From: Rhizobiaceae bacterium
GTDB lineage: Bacteria; Pseudomonadota; Alphaproteobacteria; Rhizobiales; Rhizobiaceae
Length of the DNA stretch: 10,052 bases
Reading direction: 5' to 3'
NCBI GenBank assembly: GCA_014380965.1
Contig: JACMIV010000196.1
Location: 1 to 10,052 of the forward strand
Part shown: positions 4,442 to 9,635 of the stretch, in pieces
Numbering within the stretch: position 1 is the first letter of the stretch
Layout of the letters: each line of letters begins with the position of its first letter
The notes under the pieces: generated by a model
The model's input: the letters and a program-made list of their open reading frames with translations, nothing else
Databases searched by the model: none
What the model was told of the DNA's origin: nothing
Made by a program: the position numbers and the translations under genes

Positions 4442-5293
4442 TCAGGTGGTTTCGCGCGGGTCGTCCCGCGAAGGCTCCGGGCGAAGCGCCGCGTCGTCGC
4501 GGGCGGAGCGGAGGGAAACGACGTTGCCGGGAAGTGCGCCAGGCGTCTTCGGCGGCCAGAGGTCGATGTCGCGGGTGATCTTGGCGCCGTAGCGCTCGCG
4601 CTCTTCCGGCCGGTCGCGCGGCCGCTCGAAGGCGACGACGCGCGTGCCGAGGCCGAATGCTTCGGGGAGATCGTGCGTGACCATCACGACCGTGAGGTCG
4701 CAGGTGTTCCAGATCCGGCGCATGAGGGCGTGGATGTCCGCGCGGATGCCGGGATCGAGCGCGCCGAAGGGTTCGTCGAGGAGGAGGATCTTCGGCTTCT
4801 GCATCAGCGCCTGGGCGAGCGCGAGGCGCTGCTGCATGCCGCCGGATAGCTGGGCGGGATATTTGTCCTCCTGGCCGGCTAGGCCGACTTCGGCGAGAAG
4901 CGCCATCGCATCCTCGCGCGCCTGCTGCCGCGCGGCGCCGAAGAGGCGCGCGAAGAAGCCGCCGGTCTGGAATTCACGGCCGAGCATGACATTTCCCACG
5001 GCGGTCAGGTGCGGAAAGACCGAATAGCGCTGGAACACAACGCCCCGGTCGGATCCCGGCTCGGGCGCCAGCGGCCGGCCGCCGACAAGGATCTCGCCGC
5101 GCGTCGGCTTCTCCTGGCTGAGCAGCATGCGCAGGAACGTCGTCTTGCCGCAGCCTGACGGGCCGACGAGGGCGACGAAGGCGCGGGGCGCGATCTCGAT
5201 CGAGATGTCCTCCAGCACGATCTGGTCGCCGAACTCCTTCCAGACGTTGCGGACGCTGATCGCGCCGTCGTCTTCGATCGTCGATCCAGCCAT
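4442..5293 (-). CDS. ABC transporter ATP-binding protein, nitrate/taurine type, for guanidine (or urea) uptake
   Basis: A 283-residue cytoplasmic ATPase that powers the importer formed with the adjacent permease and the upstream binding protein. All ABC motifs are intact: Walker A GPSGCGKT (44-51), Q-loop Gln88 in VVFQRYSVFPHL, signature LSGGMQQR (149-156), Walker B ILLLDEP (Asp173, Glu174) followed by FGALD, and switch His207 in VVMVTHD. It resembles the TauB/SsuB group, with a charged C-terminal tail after about residue 225 (WPPKTPGALPGNVVSLR) often seen in transporters beside urea carboxylase genes. Its ATG shares one base with the permease stop codon (TGATG), so translation is coupled. 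It ends 12 bases before UAAP1. The substrate is inferred from the guanidine riboswitch and the neighbouring enzymes; the ATPase itself carries no substrate information. Confidence 0.95.
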   Translation of the reverse strand: MAGSTIEDDGAISVRNVWKEFGDQIVLEDISIEIAPRAFVALVGPSGCGKTTFLRMLLSQEKPTRGEILVGGRPLAPEPGSDRGVVFQRYSVFPHLTAVGNVMLGREFQTGGFFARLFGAARQQAREDAMALLAEVGLAGQEDKYPAQLSGGMQQRLALAQALMQKPKILLLDEPFGALDPGIRADIHALMRRIWNTCDLTVVMVTHDLPEAFGLGTRVVAFERPRDRPEERERYGAKITRDIDLWPPKTPGALPGNVVSLRSARDDAALRPEPSRDDPRETT

Positions 5294-6177
5294 CAGCCTG
5301 CCCTCCCTGCGAACCAGGGAAAGGCGCGTGCCTGGAGCAGACGCAGCGCAAAATCCATGAGGAAGGCGATGAGCGTGATCCAGGCGACGTAGGGGAGAAT
5401 TACGTCCATCGAGAGATAGCGCCGCACGAGGAAGATGCGGTAGCCGAGGCCCGATTCCGAGGCGATCGCCTCCGCCGCGATGAGGAACAGCCAGGCCGGC
5501 CCGAGCGACAGGCGCACGGAATCGATGAGGCGCGGCAGGATCTGAGGCAGCGTCACGCGGAGCGCCAGCTGCCAGCTCGTCGCGCCCAGCGTCTCGGCCT
5601 TGATCGTCTGCTCGCGCGGCAGTTCCTCGACACGCGCCGCAAGGTCCCGAATGAGAAAAGGCGTTATGCCGATGGCGATGAGCGTGATCTTGGCGCTTTC
5701 GCCGAGCCCGAGCAGGATGAACAGGATCGGCAGCAACGCCAGCGGCGGCACCATCGAGACCACCGACACGAAGGGCGCGAATGTCGCCCGCGCCATCGGC
5801 AGCAGACCGAGGACGAGGCCGACGACGAGAGCGAGGACGGTGGAGATCGCCAGTGCCGCGAGGATGCGCGTGACGCTCGCGGCCGTGTCCACCCACATGA
5901 GGTAGTCCCCGGTGCGCGGATCGGGCGTCAGGGCCATGCGGCGGAAGCCGGCGGCGATGGTCTCGAAGGCGGGAAGCAGCTTGTCGGCAGGATTGGCGGC
6001 GAGGCGCAGGTCGGAAGCGACGGCATAGAGAACCAGCGCGGCGACGAAGGGGAGCATTGCAAGGAAGACCGCGCTGGTCCGGCTGGGGCGACGGTTGATC
6101 CAGCGCACGCCGGGCGTGCGCTCGGTCGGCGCTGTCGGCAAGGTGGCCGGAGCGGCGTTGCTGGAGGGTAAAGACAT
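5293..6177 (-). CDS. ABC transporter permease, nitrate/taurine type, for guanidine (or urea) uptake
   Basis: A 294-residue inner-membrane permease (binding-protein-dependent transport family). About six hydrophobic segments are visible, near 36-55, 103-127, 135-157, 163-180, 224-244 and 258-280. The cytoplasmic EAA loop that docks the ATPase is AETLGATSWQLALRVTLPQILP in outline (about 194-215). A long periplasmic stretch follows the first segment. I chose the ATG at 6177 because AGGGGA lies just upstream. The frame stays open up to an ATG at 6348, but that extension would run through the riboswitch and has no membrane or family character. The gene is the first translated after the ykkC aptamer, and its ribosome-binding site can be hidden in a hairpin, so its translation is probably induced by guanidine. 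It overlaps the ATPase gene by one base. Confidence 0.94.
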   Translation of the reverse strand: MSLPSSNAAPATLPTAPTERTPGVRWINRRPSRTSAVFLAMLPFVAALVLYAVASDLRLAANPADKLLPAFETIAAGFRRMALTPDPRTGDYLMWVDTAASVTRILAALAISTVLALVVGLVLGLLPMARATFAPFVSVVSMVPPLALLPILFILLGLGESAKITLIAIGITPFLIRDLAARVEELPREQTIKAETLGATSWQLALRVTLPQILPRLIDSVRLSLGPAWLFLIAAEAIASESGLGYRIFLVRRYLSMDVILPYVAWITLIAFLMDFALRLLQARAFPWFAGRAG

Positions 6178-6181
6178 CGGG

Positions 6182-6203
6182 TCCCCTGGCGAACATTCGG
6201 GGA
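6182..6203 (-). promoter_or_regulatory. Hairpin masking the permease ribosome-binding site (riboswitch expression platform)
   Basis: On the minus strand, TCCCC (6203-6199) can pair with GGGGA (6186-6182) across a 12-base loop. GGGGA is part of the AGGGGA ribosome-binding site 4 bases before the permease ATG at 6177. No run of U follows any hairpin between the aptamer and the ATG, so control of translation is more likely than transcription termination. The pairing is seen; its role as the switch is inferred. Confidence 0.5.
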
Positions 6204-6245
6204 TCGGCACGAGACGTCGCTCGGCCGATCGGGTCGGCTTGTCGC

Positions 6246-6371
6246 GAGGTCTCCCGGGTTTTTGTCCCGCCGTGCTCCGCGCGGATGAAGCCCGCACGGT
6301 GGCAGCTCTCGGACCAGCGGTCTCGCTCGATCTTGCGATCGACGACACCCGGAACCCTAGCCACCAACTCC
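6246..6371 (-). ncRNA. Guanidine-I riboswitch (ykkC class aptamer)
   Basis: The minus strand carries the conserved ykkC blocks in the right order. CTAGGGTTCCG is at 6360-6350, CTGGTCCGAGAGC at 6317-6305, and a 3' block CGGGACAAAAACCCGGGAGA at about 6269-6250. Helices support the fold. GGTGGC (6365-6360) pairs with GCCACC (6303-6298), enclosing the first two blocks. TCGATC-GCAA-GATCGA (6342-6327) makes a GNRA-capped hairpin. CGTGC near 6298-6294 pairs with GCACG near 6275-6271 as the second domain. Guanidine-I riboswitches bind guanidinium and are normally ON switches. Here the aptamer lies in the permease leader, between the binding-protein gene and the rest of the operon. A covariance-model match to the ykkC Rfam family would confirm it. 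Confidence 0.93.
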
Positions 6372-6381
6372 GGCAATGCCT

Positions 6382-6398
6382 TGCAAAGATCGTGCCAG
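6382..6398 (-). promoter_or_regulatory. Sigma-54 (RpoN) promoter for the riboswitch-permease-ATPase-UAAP-carboxylase operon
   Basis: The minus strand reads CTGGCACGATCTTTGCA, matching the -24/-12 consensus YTGGCACG-N4-TTGCW at every fixed position, with 10 bases between the invariant GG and GC. The predicted transcription start is near 6371, exactly where the guanidine aptamer begins. Sigma-54 promoters need an enhancer-binding activator; for nitrogen genes this is usually NtrC. I saw no convincing NtrC site in the upstream part of the binding-protein gene. Confidence 0.85.
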
Positions 6399-6432: not shown

Positions 6433-7500
6433 TCAGAGCTTGCCATCGGCAGCCGCCTGCATGAACGTATCGACGAACCTCAGCTTCACGTTCGCCGCAT
6501 CCCCGAGCGTCGTTCCGTCGGCCAAGGTGATGCCGATCACGTCGGCGGACGCTGCGCCGCTTCCGAAGAGGCCCTTGTCGAAGAGGAAGGTCCGCACGGC
6601 GTCCATCTTCGCCTTAACATCGGCGCCCTTGATGAAGTCGAGACCGGTTGCCGGAGTCGCGAAGAGGTTCGTCGCGGCGAGCTGCGCCTCGAAGCCGGCG
6701 CGGTCGGAGCCGGACGCCTTGCCCATCGCCTCCCGCGCGGCTTCGCCCTCGGGCGTGTCGGCGGTCATCACCGCCATCGTCTCGTACCAGATGCCGGCAA
6801 GCGCGAGGCCGAAGTTTGGATTGTCGGCGAGGACCTCGGTCTTGGCGACGGTCAAATCCATGATCTCGCCGGGAATCTTCGAGGAATCGAACAGCACCTT
6901 GCCGTTGCCGGCGCTGACGATTTCCGAGGCGAGCGGGTTCCAGGTGACGACGGTGGTCACGTCGGGCGTGCCGGCGACAGCGACCATGTCCGCATCCGAG
7001 GTGTTGACGACGGTCACGTCCTTTTCGGAGAGACCGGCCGACTCGAGACCGCGGGCGAGGAGGTAGTGCGAGACCGAGAGCTCGACGAGGTTTATGCTCT
7101 CGCCTTTCAGGCCCGCGAGATCGGCAGCTTTTTTGGCGATCACCATGTCGTTGCCGTTGGAATAGTCGTTGATGACGACGACCGAGGTGTCGACGCCGCC
7201 CGCCGACGGGATAGAGAGTGCATCCATATTGGTCAGTGTGACTGCATCGTAGTCAGAGGCGGTGTATTGGTTGATCGACTCGATGTAGTCGTTGAACTGT
7301 GTCACCTCGATCGTGATGCCGTATTTGTCGGCCCATTTCTTGACGATCCCCGCGTCGTTCGCCCACCCCCATGGCATCCAACCGACATAGATCGACCAGC
7401 CGAGCTTGAAGTCGGTCTTGGCTTGCGCGACCGCCAACGTCGGGGTGCCGAGAAGGAGAGCTGCGCCGAAGGCGGCAGAGATCAGTCGGGTGAATCGCAT
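6433..7500 (-). CDS. Periplasmic substrate-binding protein, urea-carboxylase-associated (probable guanidine binder)
   Basis: A 355-residue secreted protein that should capture the substrate in the periplasm and hand it to the adjacent permease. Residues 1-27 form a signal peptide: a basic start (MRFTR), a hydrophobic core (AAFGAALLLG) and likely cleavage after AVA or AQA. The mature start KTDFKLGWSIYVGWMPWGWA and the blocks TLTNMDALSIP (88-98), YSNGNDMVIAKK (113-124), TVVTWNPL (183-190) and ATNLFATP (276-283) fit the NitT/TauT-like family found beside urea carboxylase genes. Trp35, Tyr38, Trp41, Trp44 and Trp46 form an aromatic-rich strip near the expected ligand cleft. The ATG at 7500 has AAGGAAA 5 bases upstream and starts at the signal peptide; an in-frame ATG at 7554 lacks this support. 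It is transcribed from its own sigma-54-like promoter and lies upstream of, not under, the riboswitch. Confidence 0.93.
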   Translation of the reverse strand: MRFTRLISAAFGAALLLGTPTLAVAQAKTDFKLGWSIYVGWMPWGWANDAGIVKKWADKYGITIEVTQFNDYIESINQYTASDYDAVTLTNMDALSIPSAGGVDTSVVVINDYSNGNDMVIAKKAADLAGLKGESINLVELSVSHYLLARGLESAGLSEKDVTVVNTSDADMVAVAGTPDVTTVVTWNPLASEIVSAGNGKVLFDSSKIPGEIMDLTVAKTEVLADNPNFGLALAGIWYETMAVMTADTPEGEAAREAMGKASGSDRAGFEAQLAATNLFATPATGLDFIKGADVKAKMDAVRTFLFDKGLFGSGAASADVIGITLADGTTLGDAANVKLRFVDTFMQAAADGKL

Positions 7501-7581
7501 GGCGGTTTCCTTGGCTGGTGATATCATTGGCGCCGTCAACGGCCCGACATGCATGACGCGGCTTGGGTCGACGCTCGACGC

Positions 7582-7603
7582 GCCTCATTGCATGCAATGA
7601 GGC
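7582..7603. promoter_or_regulatory. Perfect 22-bp palindrome, candidate operator
   Basis: The core CCTCATTGCATGCAATGAGG (7583-7602) equals its own reverse complement and is extended by a G/C pair on the outside. It covers the -12 element and the predicted start site (about 7590) of the sigma-54-like promoter. A dimeric regulator bound here would block that promoter. The regulator is unknown and no regulator gene lies in the window. As RNA it could only form a hairpin in a transcript starting further upstream. Confidence 0.55.
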
Positions 7604-7617
7604 AAGCGCCGTGCCGA
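7601..7617 (-). promoter_or_regulatory. Sigma-54-like promoter for the substrate-binding-protein gene
   Basis: The minus strand reads TCGGCACGGCGCTTGCC. It keeps GGCACG, the TTGC element and the 10-base spacing between the invariant GG and GC, and differs from YTGGCACG-N4-TTGCW at the T before GG and at the last base. The predicted start near 7590 gives a leader of about 90 bases before the ATG at 7500. The position upstream of a nitrogen-uptake gene, and a second better sigma-54 site in the same cluster, support it. Confidence 0.65.
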
Positions 7618-7620
7618 AGT

Positions 7621-7638
7621 CGCCTCCGGCCCGAGGCG
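7621..7638. repeat. Inverted repeat CGCCTC-N6-GAGGCG
   Basis: A 6-base-arm inverted repeat just upstream of the sigma-54-like promoter. Its left arm CGCCTC recurs exactly 40 bp away at 7581-7586, where it begins the left half of the 22-bp palindrome. It may be a second binding site for the same regulator, or chance in GC-rich DNA. Confidence 0.35.
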
Positions 7639-7748
7639 ATGTCCGCGCGTGATGGAATTCGGCGATCCCCCTTTCCCGCAGATGCGACGTCGTCCAACTC
7701 CATGGCCTTGGACTTCGAGACCTCTCGGTCATAGGTGTCGATGGTGGC

Positions 7749-9635
7749 GTGGACGGCACGTCGCTTGCTGGGCAAACAAGGGAGGATTTTCGACTGGCCG
7801 GACCGACGACATTCAGGGAACGTCTGGGGGCCTTGCGCAACCTGCCGCCCTTCTTCGCACTGGTCTGGCGCGCGAGCCCCGGCCTGACGACGCTTTCCGC
7901 AGTCATCCGCCTCCTGCGCGCGCTCCAGCCCGCACTCGCGCTGTTCGTCGGCAAGCTGATCATCGATGAGATCGTCATGCTCGCCCAGAGGCCCGAGCGG
8001 CCCGAGACCTTCGGCGCCTGGGTAGACAGCGGGCTTCTCGACTGGATCGCGCTCCTTCTCCTTGCCGAACTCGCGCTCGCGATCCTCGCCGACCTCCTCG
8101 GCCGGATCGTCTCCTTCACCGAGAGCCTGCTTTCCGAGCGCGTATCGAACTCTTCGAGCGTCAGACTGATGGAGCATGCGGCGACGCTCGATCTCGAGAG
8201 CTTCGAAGATGCCGAGTTCCAAAATAGCCTGGAGCGCGCCCGCCGGCAGACCAGCGGCCGGATGACGCTGATGACGCAGGTCTTCGGGCAGGCGCAGGAT
8301 CTCGTGACGGTCGCAAGCTTTGCCGCGGGCCTCGTCCTCTACGCGCCCTGGCTCATCGCCTTTCTGATGCTGGCGCTGATTCCCGGCTTTCTCGGCGAGG
8401 CACATTTCAATGCCGAGAGCTACCGGCTCGCCTATTCCCGCACGCCCGAACGGCGTGAGCTCGACTACGTCCGACAGACCGCGGCGAGCGCCGAGACGGC
8501 GAAGGAGGTCAAGATCTTCGGCCTCCAAGCCTTCCTCACCGAGCGTTATCGGAGTTTGGCTGCGGAGTTCTATCGGGCGAACCGTGACCTTGCGCTGCGC
8601 CGCGCCGGATGGGGGGCCGTCTTCGCCGCACTCGGAACGATCGCCTATTACGTCGCCTATGCCACGATCGTCTGGCGCACGCTCGCCGGCGCCTTCTCCA
8701 TCGGAGACCTCACCTTCCTCGCCGGCTCGTTCCTGCGTCTGCGGGGCCTCCTCGAAGGTCTCTTGGCCGGCTTTTCGACGACAGCGGCGCAAGCGCTCTA
8801 TCTCGGCGATCTCTTCTCCTTCTTCGAGGTGAAGCCGAGGATCGTCTCGCCCGCAAATCCCCGGCGGTTTCCCGATCCGATCGCAGAAGGTTTCCTCTTC
8901 GAGGATGTCGGCTTTCTCTATCCAGGCGCCGAACGCTGGGCGGTTCGGCATCTCTCCTTCGCACTGCGTCCGGGCGAAGTGGTCGCGCTCGTCGGCGAGA
9001 ACGGGGCGGGCAAGACGACGCTGGTGAAGCTGCTGGCGCGTCTCTACGATCCCGTCGAGGGGCGCATCCTCCTCGACGGGCACGACCTCAAGGATTACGA
9101 CCTCAACGCCGTGCGCGCCAAGATCGGCGTCATTTTCCAGGACTTCGTCCGCTACAACTTGAATGCCGGCGACAACATCTCGGTCGGCCGGATCGAGGCG
9201 CGCGACGACAGGCCGCGGATCGAACGGGCGGCCGGCCGCAGCCTTGCCGACAGCGTCATCGCCAAGCTCCCGGCCGGTTACGACCAGATGGTCGGCAAGC
9301 GCTTCATGAACGGCGTCGAGCTCTCCGGCGGCGAATGGCAGAAGATCGCGATCGCGCGGGCCTACATGCGCGAAGCCGAGGTCCTGATCCTCGACGAGCC
9401 GACGGCAGCGCTCGACGCGCGTTCCGAATACGGCGTCTTCGAGCGCTTCCGGGAGCTCAGCCGCGGCAAGACCACGGTTCTCATCTCCCACCGCTTCTCC
9501 AGCGTGCGCATCGCCGACCGTATCCTGGTGCTTGCCGACGGCAAGGTCGAGGCGTCGGGTACGCACGAGCAACTGATGGAGGCGTCCGGCCGATATGCCG
9601 AACTCTTCGAGCTGCAGGCAGCCGGCTACCGGTGA
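7749..9635 (+). CDS. ABC exporter half-transporter (fused membrane and ATPase domains), substrate unknown
   Basis: A 628-residue MsbA/MdlB-type transporter that should work as a dimer in the inner membrane. The N-terminal two thirds is a membrane domain with hydrophobic stretches near residues 45-75, 95-125, 180-215, 285-310 and 315-345. The ATPase domain follows, with Walker A GENGAGKT (416-423), Q-loop in VIFQDFVRYNL, signature LSGGEWQK (525-532), Walker B VLILDEP (Asp549, Glu550), D-loop ALDA and switch His581 in ISHRFSS. All catalytic motifs are intact. The listed start is a GTG with only a poor AGGTG upstream; a better ribosome-binding site AGGGAGGA (7779-7786) precedes an in-frame CTG at 7794, so the true start is uncertain by 15 codons. 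It is divergent from the guanidine cluster and has no co-transcribed partner in view, so its substrate cannot be inferred; drug, lipid and peptide export are all possible. Confidence 0.92.
   Translation: MDGTSLAGQTREDFRLAGPTTFRERLGALRNLPPFFALVWRASPGLTTLSAVIRLLRALQPALALFVGKLIIDEIVMLAQRPERPETFGAWVDSGLLDWIALLLLAELALAILADLLGRIVSFTESLLSERVSNSSSVRLMEHAATLDLESFEDAEFQNSLERARRQTSGRMTLMTQVFGQAQDLVTVASFAAGLVLYAPWLIAFLMLALIPGFLGEAHFNAESYRLAYSRTPERRELDYVRQTAASAETAKEVKIFGLQAFLTERYRSLAAEFYRANRDLALRRAGWGAVFAALGTIAYYVAYATIVWRTLAGAFSIGDLTFLAGSFLRLRGLLEGLLAGFSTTAAQALYLGDLFSFFEVKPRIVSPANPRRFPDPIAEGFLFEDVGFLYPGAERWAVRHLSFALRPGEVVALVGENGAGKTTLVKLLARLYDPVEGRILLDGHDLKDYDLNAVRAKIGVIFQDFVRYNLNAGDNISVGRIEARDDRPRIERAAGRSLADSVIAKLPAGYDQMVGKRFMNGVELSGGEWQKIAIARAYMREAEVLILDEPTAALDARSEYGVFERFRELSRGKTTVLISHRFSSVRIADRILVLADGKVEASGTHEQLMEASGRYAELFELQAAGYR

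What the first reader, a model, noticed from the sequence alone, without database searches (positions are those of the whole stretch)
6246..6371. Guanidine-I riboswitch inside a 'urea carboxylase' cluster
Three conserved ykkC blocks and three supporting helices are present on the minus strand in the 255-bp gap before the permease gene. This gives direct sequence evidence that the cluster responds to guanidine, although homology alone would label every gene here as urea-related.
Basis: partly seen in the sequence, partly recalled or inferred. Interest (0 to 1): 0.88.

Follow-up and report, generated by a model that had tools for sequence, protein, structure and literature searches.

The report
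Guanidine riboswitch behind a sigma-54 promoter
A guanidine-sensing RNA switch sits right at the predicted start of a transcript made from a nitrogen-starvation type promoter, so the genes for taking up and breaking down guanidine probably turn on only when the cell both lacks nitrogen and has guanidine; the same pairing recurs in many related bacteria.

Summary
In detail: Rfam Guanidine-I (RF00442) matches 6249-6371 on the minus strand with 75.4 bits, gathering score 63. It is the only match in this partial genome. That such riboswitches precede 'urea carboxylase' (guanidine carboxylase) clusters is already known.

An exact sigma-54 -24/-12 box (TGGCACG-N4-TTGCA, 6382-6397) ends 10 nt before the aptamer and puts the predicted transcript start at its first base. 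Three exact boxes exist in the 2.57-Mb assembly. The pairing is conserved: 62 of 74 sampled alphaproteobacterial aptamers over the gathering score have a box, against 0.22% of random windows; 1 of 40 in other sampled Proteobacteria does, and 0 of 12 variant aptamers before EamA-type transporter genes. NtrC-type enhancer motifs are enriched upstream in relatives, but the window's own promoter has no exact one.

Best reading: an AND gate in which nitrogen limitation (sigma-54, probably NtrC) and guanidine (RNA) jointly switch on uptake and degradation. Unusually, the unit lies between binding-protein and permease genes; 2 of 69 places show this, window and same-genus G166.

The parts
6382..6397 (-). 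sigma-54 (-24/-12) promoter box TGGCACGATCTTTGCA; predicted +1 at about 6371-6372
   Evidence: Exact match to TGGCACGNNNNTTGCW; 0.01 expected per window from shuffles; 3 exact sites in the whole assembly; box at similar spacing in 62 of 74 sampled alphaproteobacterial aptamers over the gathering score
6249..6371 (-). Guanidine-I (ykkC subtype 1) riboswitch aptamer
   Evidence: RF00442, 75.4 bits, gathering score 63, E 2.1e-12
6178..6248 (-). putative expression platform with candidate switching helices and the Shine-Dalgarno AGGGGA of the permease; function inferred
   Evidence: Similar to relatives' leaders; candidate helices counted; folding with and without an aptamer constraint
6433..7500 (-). 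ABC transporter substrate-binding protein gene (guanidine/'urea' type), upstream of the internal promoter
   Evidence: TIGR03427 ABC_peri_uca, 500.1 bits, cut-off 333.9
7602..7616 (-). weaker sigma-54-like site CGGCACGGCGCTTGC upstream of the binding-protein gene; no aptamer found after it
   Evidence: One mismatch (6 sites with up to 2 mismatches found in the window against 3.19 expected, so weak); no Guanidine-I match in 7400-7800 at E up to 10
5293..6177 (-). ABC transporter permease gene, first gene after the riboswitch
   Evidence: PF00528, 70.9 bits; homologues in relatives' clusters
4442..5293 (-). ABC transporter ATP-binding protein gene
   Evidence: PF00005, 115.1 bits
3605..4429 (-). 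UAAP1, DUF1989; by recalled literature a subunit of carboxyguanidine deiminase
   Evidence: TIGR03425, 257.7 bits, cut-off 205.95; PF09347
2937..3593 (-). UAAP2, DUF1989; by recalled literature a subunit of carboxyguanidine deiminase
   Evidence: TIGR03424, 322.1 bits, cut-off 284.7; PF09347
1..2933 (-). urea/guanidine carboxylase gene, cut off by the contig end (977 aa present)
   Evidence: TIGR02712, 1502.3 bits, cut-off 1303.85, profile 1-998 of 1201

Best explanation
This is a conserved two-input control unit. A sigma-54 promoter, most likely activated by phosphorylated NtrC under nitrogen limitation, starts a transcript whose first bases are the Guanidine-I aptamer. When guanidine binds, the leader changes fold and lets the downstream genes be expressed: ABC permease, ABC ATPase, UAAP1 and UAAP2, and guanidine carboxylase. 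In this window the leader probably acts on translation of the permease, since its Shine-Dalgarno is predicted to be mostly hidden without ligand and the leader shows no U-tract terminator. Guanidine is then imported and degraded to ammonium only when nitrogen is short and guanidine is present. In this genus the unit sits between the binding-protein and permease genes, so the binding protein has a separate, guanidine-independent supply. Shown by computation: aptamer, promoter box, spacing, conservation, gene content, presence of RpoN and of an NtrC-like protein fragment in the genome. Inferred: ligand, NtrC as the activator, ON direction, translational mechanism, AND logic.
For: RF00442 at 75.4 bits. 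Exact sigma-54 consensus directly upstream: 0.01 expected per window; 3 in the 2.57-Mb assembly, 0 for the reversed-pattern control on either strand. Conservation: a box of at least 10/12 within 45 nt upstream in 62 of 74 alphaproteobacterial aptamers over the gathering score (46 of 49 in the window's family, 16 of 25 in other families) against 50 of 22,513 random windows of the same loci. In 65 aligned sites TGGC and the TG of TTGC are invariant while spacer and flanks vary (sites were selected by score, which favours this). Contrast groups: 1 of 40 other Proteobacteria and 1 of 12 low-scoring alphaproteobacterial aptamers. Eleven of those 12, plus L275 at 58.4 bits, precede related transporter frames; three of these frames were run and are EamA, PF00892. 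None of these 12 has a box; the one low-scoring aptamer with a box, L084, is the one without such a frame. TGC-N11-GCA, recalled as the NtrC consensus, ranks first among palindromes upstream of the boxes: 31 of 64 against 4.8 expected. RpoN is in the genome, and an NtrC C-terminal part at 453.9 bits lies on C309. In Burkholderia cenocepacia under nitrogen limitation, 'urea carboxylase' BCAS0272 falls 6.0-fold in an ntrC mutant and BCAS0269 and BCAS0271 have no reads there (PMC5491218, passages).
Against: No exact TGC-N11-GCA lies within 250 nt upstream of the window's own internal promoter; the best sites have 5 of 6. The motif also occurs in 12 of 40 places of other Proteobacteria, of which 39 lack the box, so it does not by itself prove NtrC. 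12 of 74 alphaproteobacterial aptamers lack the box, and 11 of those 12 precede the same kinds of genes. In the window's leader, helix B does not overlap the Shine-Dalgarno helix as it does in relatives; covariation support for B and C is modest, and helix C slid by one column pairs almost as well, 96.3% against 97.1%. The TIGR01818 hit in the window's genome is under its cut-off, 453.9 against 558.6 bits, covering positions 167-463 only. No expression or binding was measured.
Confidence: 0.74

Rival explanations
1. Ordinary guanidine riboswitch on a polycistronic operon read from a promoter upstream of the binding-protein gene. The sigma-54 box at 6382-6397 is a chance or vestigial site, and only guanidine matters.
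For: The binding-protein gene lies upstream on the same strand and has its own sigma-54-like site. No exact NtrC motif is found near the internal box.
Against: Exact consensus with 0.01 expected by chance, and 62 of 74 related aptamers carry a box at similar spacing. In same-genus G166 each of the two aptamers of the cluster has its own box, 11/12 and 11/12.
Confidence: 0.1
2. Sigma-54 plus riboswitch is right, but the activator is another enhancer-binding protein that senses carbon status, guanidine or a breakdown product, not NtrC.
For: No exact NtrC motif at the window promoter, and 33 of 64 other box-bearing places have none within 250 nt.
Against: No GAFTGA-type activator frame was found in the loci of the 129 places (motif search only). 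TGC-N11-GCA is enriched. NtrC dependence is reported for Burkholderia genes of the same names (PMC5491218).
Confidence: 0.12
3. The aptamer senses another ykkC ligand (ppGpp, PRPP or similar, subtype 2).
For: Subtype 2 RNAs share the ykkC scaffold (recalled); guanidine binding was not tested here.
Against: The Guanidine-I consensus blocks match, and the downstream genes are those of guanidine assimilation, not of amino-acid or purine synthesis.
Confidence: 0.03

Closest known systems
Guanidine-I (ykkC subtype 1) riboswitches upstream of guanidine/urea carboxylase operons
   Same: Same Rfam family over the gathering score, same gene set, same expected ligand
   Different: Here placed inside the cluster between binding protein and permease, and joined to a sigma-54 promoter, a pairing not mentioned in the passages read
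Predicted sigma-54 regulon of Pseudomonadota (PMC12316311, passages)
   Same: Predicts sigma-54 promoters for 102 COG3665 genes, 59% of them named urea carboxylase, and for COG0715/COG0600/COG1116 transporters called nitrate type
   Different: 'guanidine' has no occurrence in that text and 'riboswitch' one, in a reference title; no link between the two is made in the passages seen
NtrC regulon of Burkholderia cenocepacia (PMC5491218, passages)
   Same: Urea carboxylase-type genes BCAS0269, BCAS0271 and BCAS0272 depend on ntrC under nitrogen limitation
   Different: 'guanidine' has no occurrence there; I did not check whether that locus has a Guanidine-I aptamer or a sigma-54 box
Guanidine-II (mini-ykkC) riboswitch within the same operons of relatives
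   Same: A second guanidine sensor inside the operon in 11 of 14 relatives' clusters examined
   Different: Different RNA class, apparently before UAAP1; no gathering-level Guanidine-II match in the window

Membership tests
Guanidine-I riboswitch (RF00442) | Covariance-model score at or above the curated threshold | tested here: met
   75.4 bits against 63, full length
Guanidine-I riboswitch (RF00442) | Conserved sequence blocks of the family | tested here: met
   Blocks match the consensus in the alignment
Guanidine-I riboswitch (RF00442) | Binds guanidine and switches expression | not testable with these tools
   Needs in-line probing and a reporter
Guanidine-I riboswitch (RF00442) | Expression platform that couples the aptamer to terminator or ribosome site | tested here: inconclusive
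   Candidate helices conserved in relatives with modest covariation; the window's version differs
Sigma-54-dependent promoter | -24 GG and -12 GC elements with consensus TGGCACG-N4-TTGCW (recalled; GGcacg-N4-ttGC in PMC5491218) | tested here: met
   Exact match at 6382-6397
Sigma-54-dependent promoter | Conserved at the corresponding position in relatives | tested here: met
   62 of 74 alphaproteobacterial aptamers over the gathering score, background 0.22%
Sigma-54-dependent promoter | rpoN present in the genome | tested here: met
   PF04552, 220.4 bits on C385
Sigma-54-dependent promoter | Upstream enhancer for an activator | tested here: inconclusive
   Enriched in relatives, 31 of 64; no exact site at the window promoter
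Guanidine carboxylase / carboxyguanidine deiminase cluster | Carboxylase plus two DUF1989 proteins plus ABC importer | tested here: met
   TIGR02712, TIGR03424, TIGR03425, TIGR03427 over cut-offs; permease and ATPase by Pfam
Guanidine carboxylase / carboxyguanidine deiminase cluster | Active-site residue or kinetics favouring guanidine over urea | not tested
   The carboxylase is cut off at residue 977 by the contig end; no residue analysis made

The most novel reading that the evidence does not exclude
Guanidine assimilation in most Alphaproteobacteria that use Guanidine-I RNAs, and in Acinetobacter, is governed by a standard promoter-riboswitch module: a sigma-54/NtrC start site whose first transcribed bases are the aptamer. 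This gives nitrogen-limitation AND guanidine logic, while EamA-type transporters (probably exporters) of the same bacteria use variant aptamers without sigma-54. In the window's genus the module was duplicated into the operon and the upstream RNA lost, so the importer's permease, but not its binding protein, needs guanidine.
Probability: 0.6. Interest if true: 0.68.

Novelty: new variant of a known kind. Interest (0 to 1): 0.58.

Why it matters
A 2025 review (PMC12186494, passages) says guanidine is a stressor for some bacteria and a nitrogen source for others. A conserved link between a nitrogen-starvation promoter and a guanidine RNA in uptake and degradation operons, absent from the 12 EamA-linked variant aptamers examined, would show how the same bacteria tell these roles apart: uptake and breakdown are wired to nitrogen need, the transporters that look like exporters are not. 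The module is easy to test in a laboratory species such as Rhizobium leguminosarum. It would also be a clear natural case of a riboswitch hard-wired to a sigma-54 promoter.

Tried and rejected
A hidden or decayed aptamer upstream of the binding-protein gene in the window: no Guanidine-I match at E up to 10 in 7400-7800. In G166 that place does hold one, and the local alignment of the two upstream regions showed no clear similarity.

A pathway-specific activator gene beside the cluster: no G[AS]FTGA motif in any frame of at least 150 aa in the loci of the 129 places. This is a motif search only, and a few loci are short.

An IHF site rule: WATCAAN4TTR in 4 of 64 upstream regions against 0 of 1136; too rare to use.

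A single conserved platform: relatives of the CTCG type share candidate helices, but G166 and other families diverge (the print was cut in the middle). RNA folding gave a z-score of only -1.40 for the window leader. The switch model is therefore kept as an inference. The constrained fold predicts three Shine-Dalgarno positions more open with the aptamer enforced (0.35-0.51 against 0.01), but of the other two one closes (0.03 against 0.8) and one stays closed.

What the other two exact sigma-54 boxes of the genome control: frames were printed but not identified.

The sigma-54 threshold of 10/12 was set after seeing the family set; the phylum and class sets were scored afterwards. The upstream stretch was changed from 60 nt plus 10 to 45 nt, and a 5-nt margin used was dropped because it hid one box (L312). 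The one box in other Proteobacteria (L265) has a poor -24 element (CGGCAAG).

Full report
Observation. The window is a whole 10,052-base contig of a 66%-complete, 2.57-Mb assembly. Rfam's Guanidine-I model matches 6249-6371 on the minus strand with 75.4 bits (gathering score 63, E 2.1e-12) over its whole length, and it is the only match in the assembly. Gene content on the same strand, 5' to 3': a binding protein (TIGR03427, over cut-off), the aptamer, an ABC permease, an ABC ATPase, UAAP1, UAAP2 and a urea carboxylase cut off by the contig end.

The promoter. The 255-bp gap holds TGGCACGATCTTTGCA at 6382-6397 on the minus strand, an exact sigma-54 consensus (0.01 expected in shuffles of the window, 1 of 200 shuffles with a match). 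The whole assembly has three such exact sites, with none for the reversed pattern. Counting 12 nt on from the C of the -12 element puts the start at about 6371-6372, the first base of the aptamer (direct reading). The genome has RpoN and a fragment of an NtrC-like protein on C309, 453.9 bits over positions 167-463, under the curated cut-off of 558.6. Same-genus G166 has a full NtrC over the cut-off at 687.3 bits.

Conservation. I took the aptamer places from the family, phylum and class searches (53 of 297, 43 of 398 and 21 of 289 genomes with a match). These gave 129 distinct places, the window included; one place at a contig start was dropped. A box was called when at least 10 of 12 consensus positions matched within the 45 nt before the aptamer. 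Over the gathering score, 62 of 74 alphaproteobacterial places have it, 46 of 49 in the window's own family and 16 of 25 in other families; 2 of 3 with 55-63 bits and 1 of 12 with lower scores have it; 1 of 40 places in other Proteobacteria has it. Random 45-nt windows of the alphaproteobacterial loci give 50 of 22,513. Box starts lie 20 to 32 nt before the aptamer, most often 27 (all). In 65 aligned sites TGGC and the TG of TTGC are invariant, the first T of TTGC is kept in 62 and the C in 58, while the spacer and flanks are near random; sites were chosen by score.

Contrast by gene type. By comparison with the window's proteins, 61 of the 62 alphaproteobacterial box-bearing places over the gathering score precede binding-protein or DUF1989 genes (25 with both, 33 transporter without DUF1989 within reach, 3 DUF1989 without binding protein), and 1 is unresolved. 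Of the 12 without the box, 11 also precede such genes, so gene type does not fully predict the promoter. Of the 12 low-scoring places, 11 precede frames related to one another, as does L275 at 58.4 bits; three of these frames were run against Pfam and all three are EamA transporters. None of these 12 EamA-linked places has a box; the single low-scoring place with one (L084, 45.1 bits, 10/12) is the one without such a frame. That EamA proteins here export guanidine is an assumption. In other Proteobacteria the same assimilation genes follow aptamers without the box; 21 of 40 have ACAAT close to the aptamer start against 0 of 62 in the box-bearing alphaproteobacteria, which suggests another promoter type there.

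Named genomes. These include Acinetobacter and Solimonas, gammaproteobacteria by recalled taxonomy, so the pairing is not confined to one class. In 106 of the 122 pattern hits in these stretches at least one cluster gene follows within 5 kb; in 16 none was found. Of 18 loci picked for diversity, all 18 hold an Rfam Guanidine-I.

Activator. A blind search for palindromic half-sites in 250 nt upstream of 64 boxes ranks TGC-N11-GCA first, 31 of 64 with 4.8 expected from 1136 random segments, 62 to 184 nt upstream. I recall this as the NtrC consensus. Against it: the window promoter has no exact site, and 12 of 40 places in other Proteobacteria, 3 of 13 boxless alphaproteobacterial places and 0 of 12 low-scoring ones have it. 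In print, PMC12316311 (passages) predicts sigma-54 control of 102 COG3665 genes, 59% called urea carboxylase. PMC5491218 (passages) reports, for nitrogen-limited Burkholderia cenocepacia, BCAS0272 'urea carboxylase' 6.0-fold lower in an ntrC mutant, and BCAS0269 and BCAS0271 as na(m); the legend says na means that the mutant has no reads. Neither text has an occurrence of guanidine.

Position. Of 77 alphaproteobacterial places with at least 55 bits, 67 have the binding-protein gene downstream of the aptamer, 2 have it only upstream, and 8 have none within the locus. The 2 are the window and one of two aptamers of same-genus G166, where binding protein, aptamer and permease follow each other as in the window. 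G166's other aptamer precedes the binding protein, and each has an 11/12 box. The window lacks the upstream RNA and keeps only a one-mismatch sigma-54-like site there. Of two further same-genus genomes one has only a 33%-identical relative of UAAP2 and one has none, so the cluster is not universal in the genus. The likely history is duplication within the genus, then loss of the upstream RNA in the window; this rests on two genomes.

Leader. Twenty leaders, the window's and 19 relatives' out of 27 of the type found, align. Relatives can form a helix AAGGGAUUGGC/GCCGAUCCCUU (97.7% of cells paired, 1 pair with two-sided change; covariation score reached by 19 of 500 shuffles) and a helix CCCUUUU/AAAAGGGG that hides the Shine-Dalgarno (97.1% paired, score reached by 0 of 500 shuffles, but 96.3% paired when slid by one column). 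In relatives these overlap and so exclude each other. The window keeps shortened versions that no longer overlap and has no U-tract, so a terminator is unlikely there (my reading). The minimum-energy fold pairs the conserved GGGUUCC of the aptamer with GGGACCC at the Shine-Dalgarno when the aptamer is not enforced. This would give an ON switch at translation, but it is a weak inference (z-score -1.40).

Literature search. Searches for guanidine + riboswitch + sigma54, + sigma-54, guanidine carboxylase + riboswitch + NtrC, ykkC + rpoN, guanidine + riboswitch + nitrogen limitation and riboswitch + sigma54-dependent promoter listed 3, 1, 0, 1, 1 and 11 papers, none of which by title and start of abstract describes the pairing; passages of two of them were read. 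The library lacks most subscription papers; the 2021 paper on guanidine as nitrogen source is not held.

Verdict. The joining of promoter and riboswitch is a conserved feature that I did not find described in these searches, best read as a nitrogen-limitation AND guanidine gate. The computation supports the architecture strongly; the logic remains to be tested.

Noticed in passing
L052, L056, L061, L063, L065, L067, L069, L070, L074, L076, L077; also L115, L154, L169, L194: Relatives carry a second guanidine sensor of another class, Guanidine-II (mini-ykkC), inside the same operon about 2.8-3.1 kb after the Guanidine-I aptamer: 11 of 14 loci and 4 of 18. No gathering-level match in the window or in L036 of G166.
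   Followed up: partly
L051, L081-L083, L085-L087, L252, L253, L275-L277: Low-scoring Guanidine-I-like RNAs (33-58 bits) with the core CTAGGGTTCCG precede related transporter frames, EamA by Pfam in the three tested, and have no sigma-54 box. They may be a variant aptamer class.
   Followed up: partly
L299, L307, L311 (family f14): The -24 element is lost while TTTGCT remains and TATACA appears just before the aptamer, which looks like a swap from sigma-54 to a housekeeping promoter in one lineage.
   Followed up: no
L036 (G166), aptamer upstream of the binding-protein gene: This aptamer reads CUGCGACCGAGAGC where the family has CUGGUCCGAGAGC, a change in a highly conserved block, while its sister copy in the same cluster is canonical there.
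   Followed up: no
window 7584-7601: Perfect 18-bp palindrome CTCATTGCATGCAATGAG just downstream of the sigma-54-like site before the binding-protein gene; possibly a repressor operator.
   Followed up: no
L042 (G166 C1:4317552-4317658): A third Guanidine-I aptamer with a 12/12 sigma-54 box in the same-genus genome, in front of a frame that reads like a different ABC transporter ATPase.
   Followed up: no
L189 and L135: Records titled Anaerolineae MAG and Mycobacterium sp. KBS0706 carry the box-plus-aptamer unit; possibly binning or naming errors, as the L189 unit reads the same as that of L250 from an alphaproteobacterium.
   Followed up: no
window 7749-9635, plus strand: Divergent ABC exporter gene (MsbA-like, below the cut-offs listed) next to the cluster; no sign that it belongs to guanidine control.
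   Followed up: no
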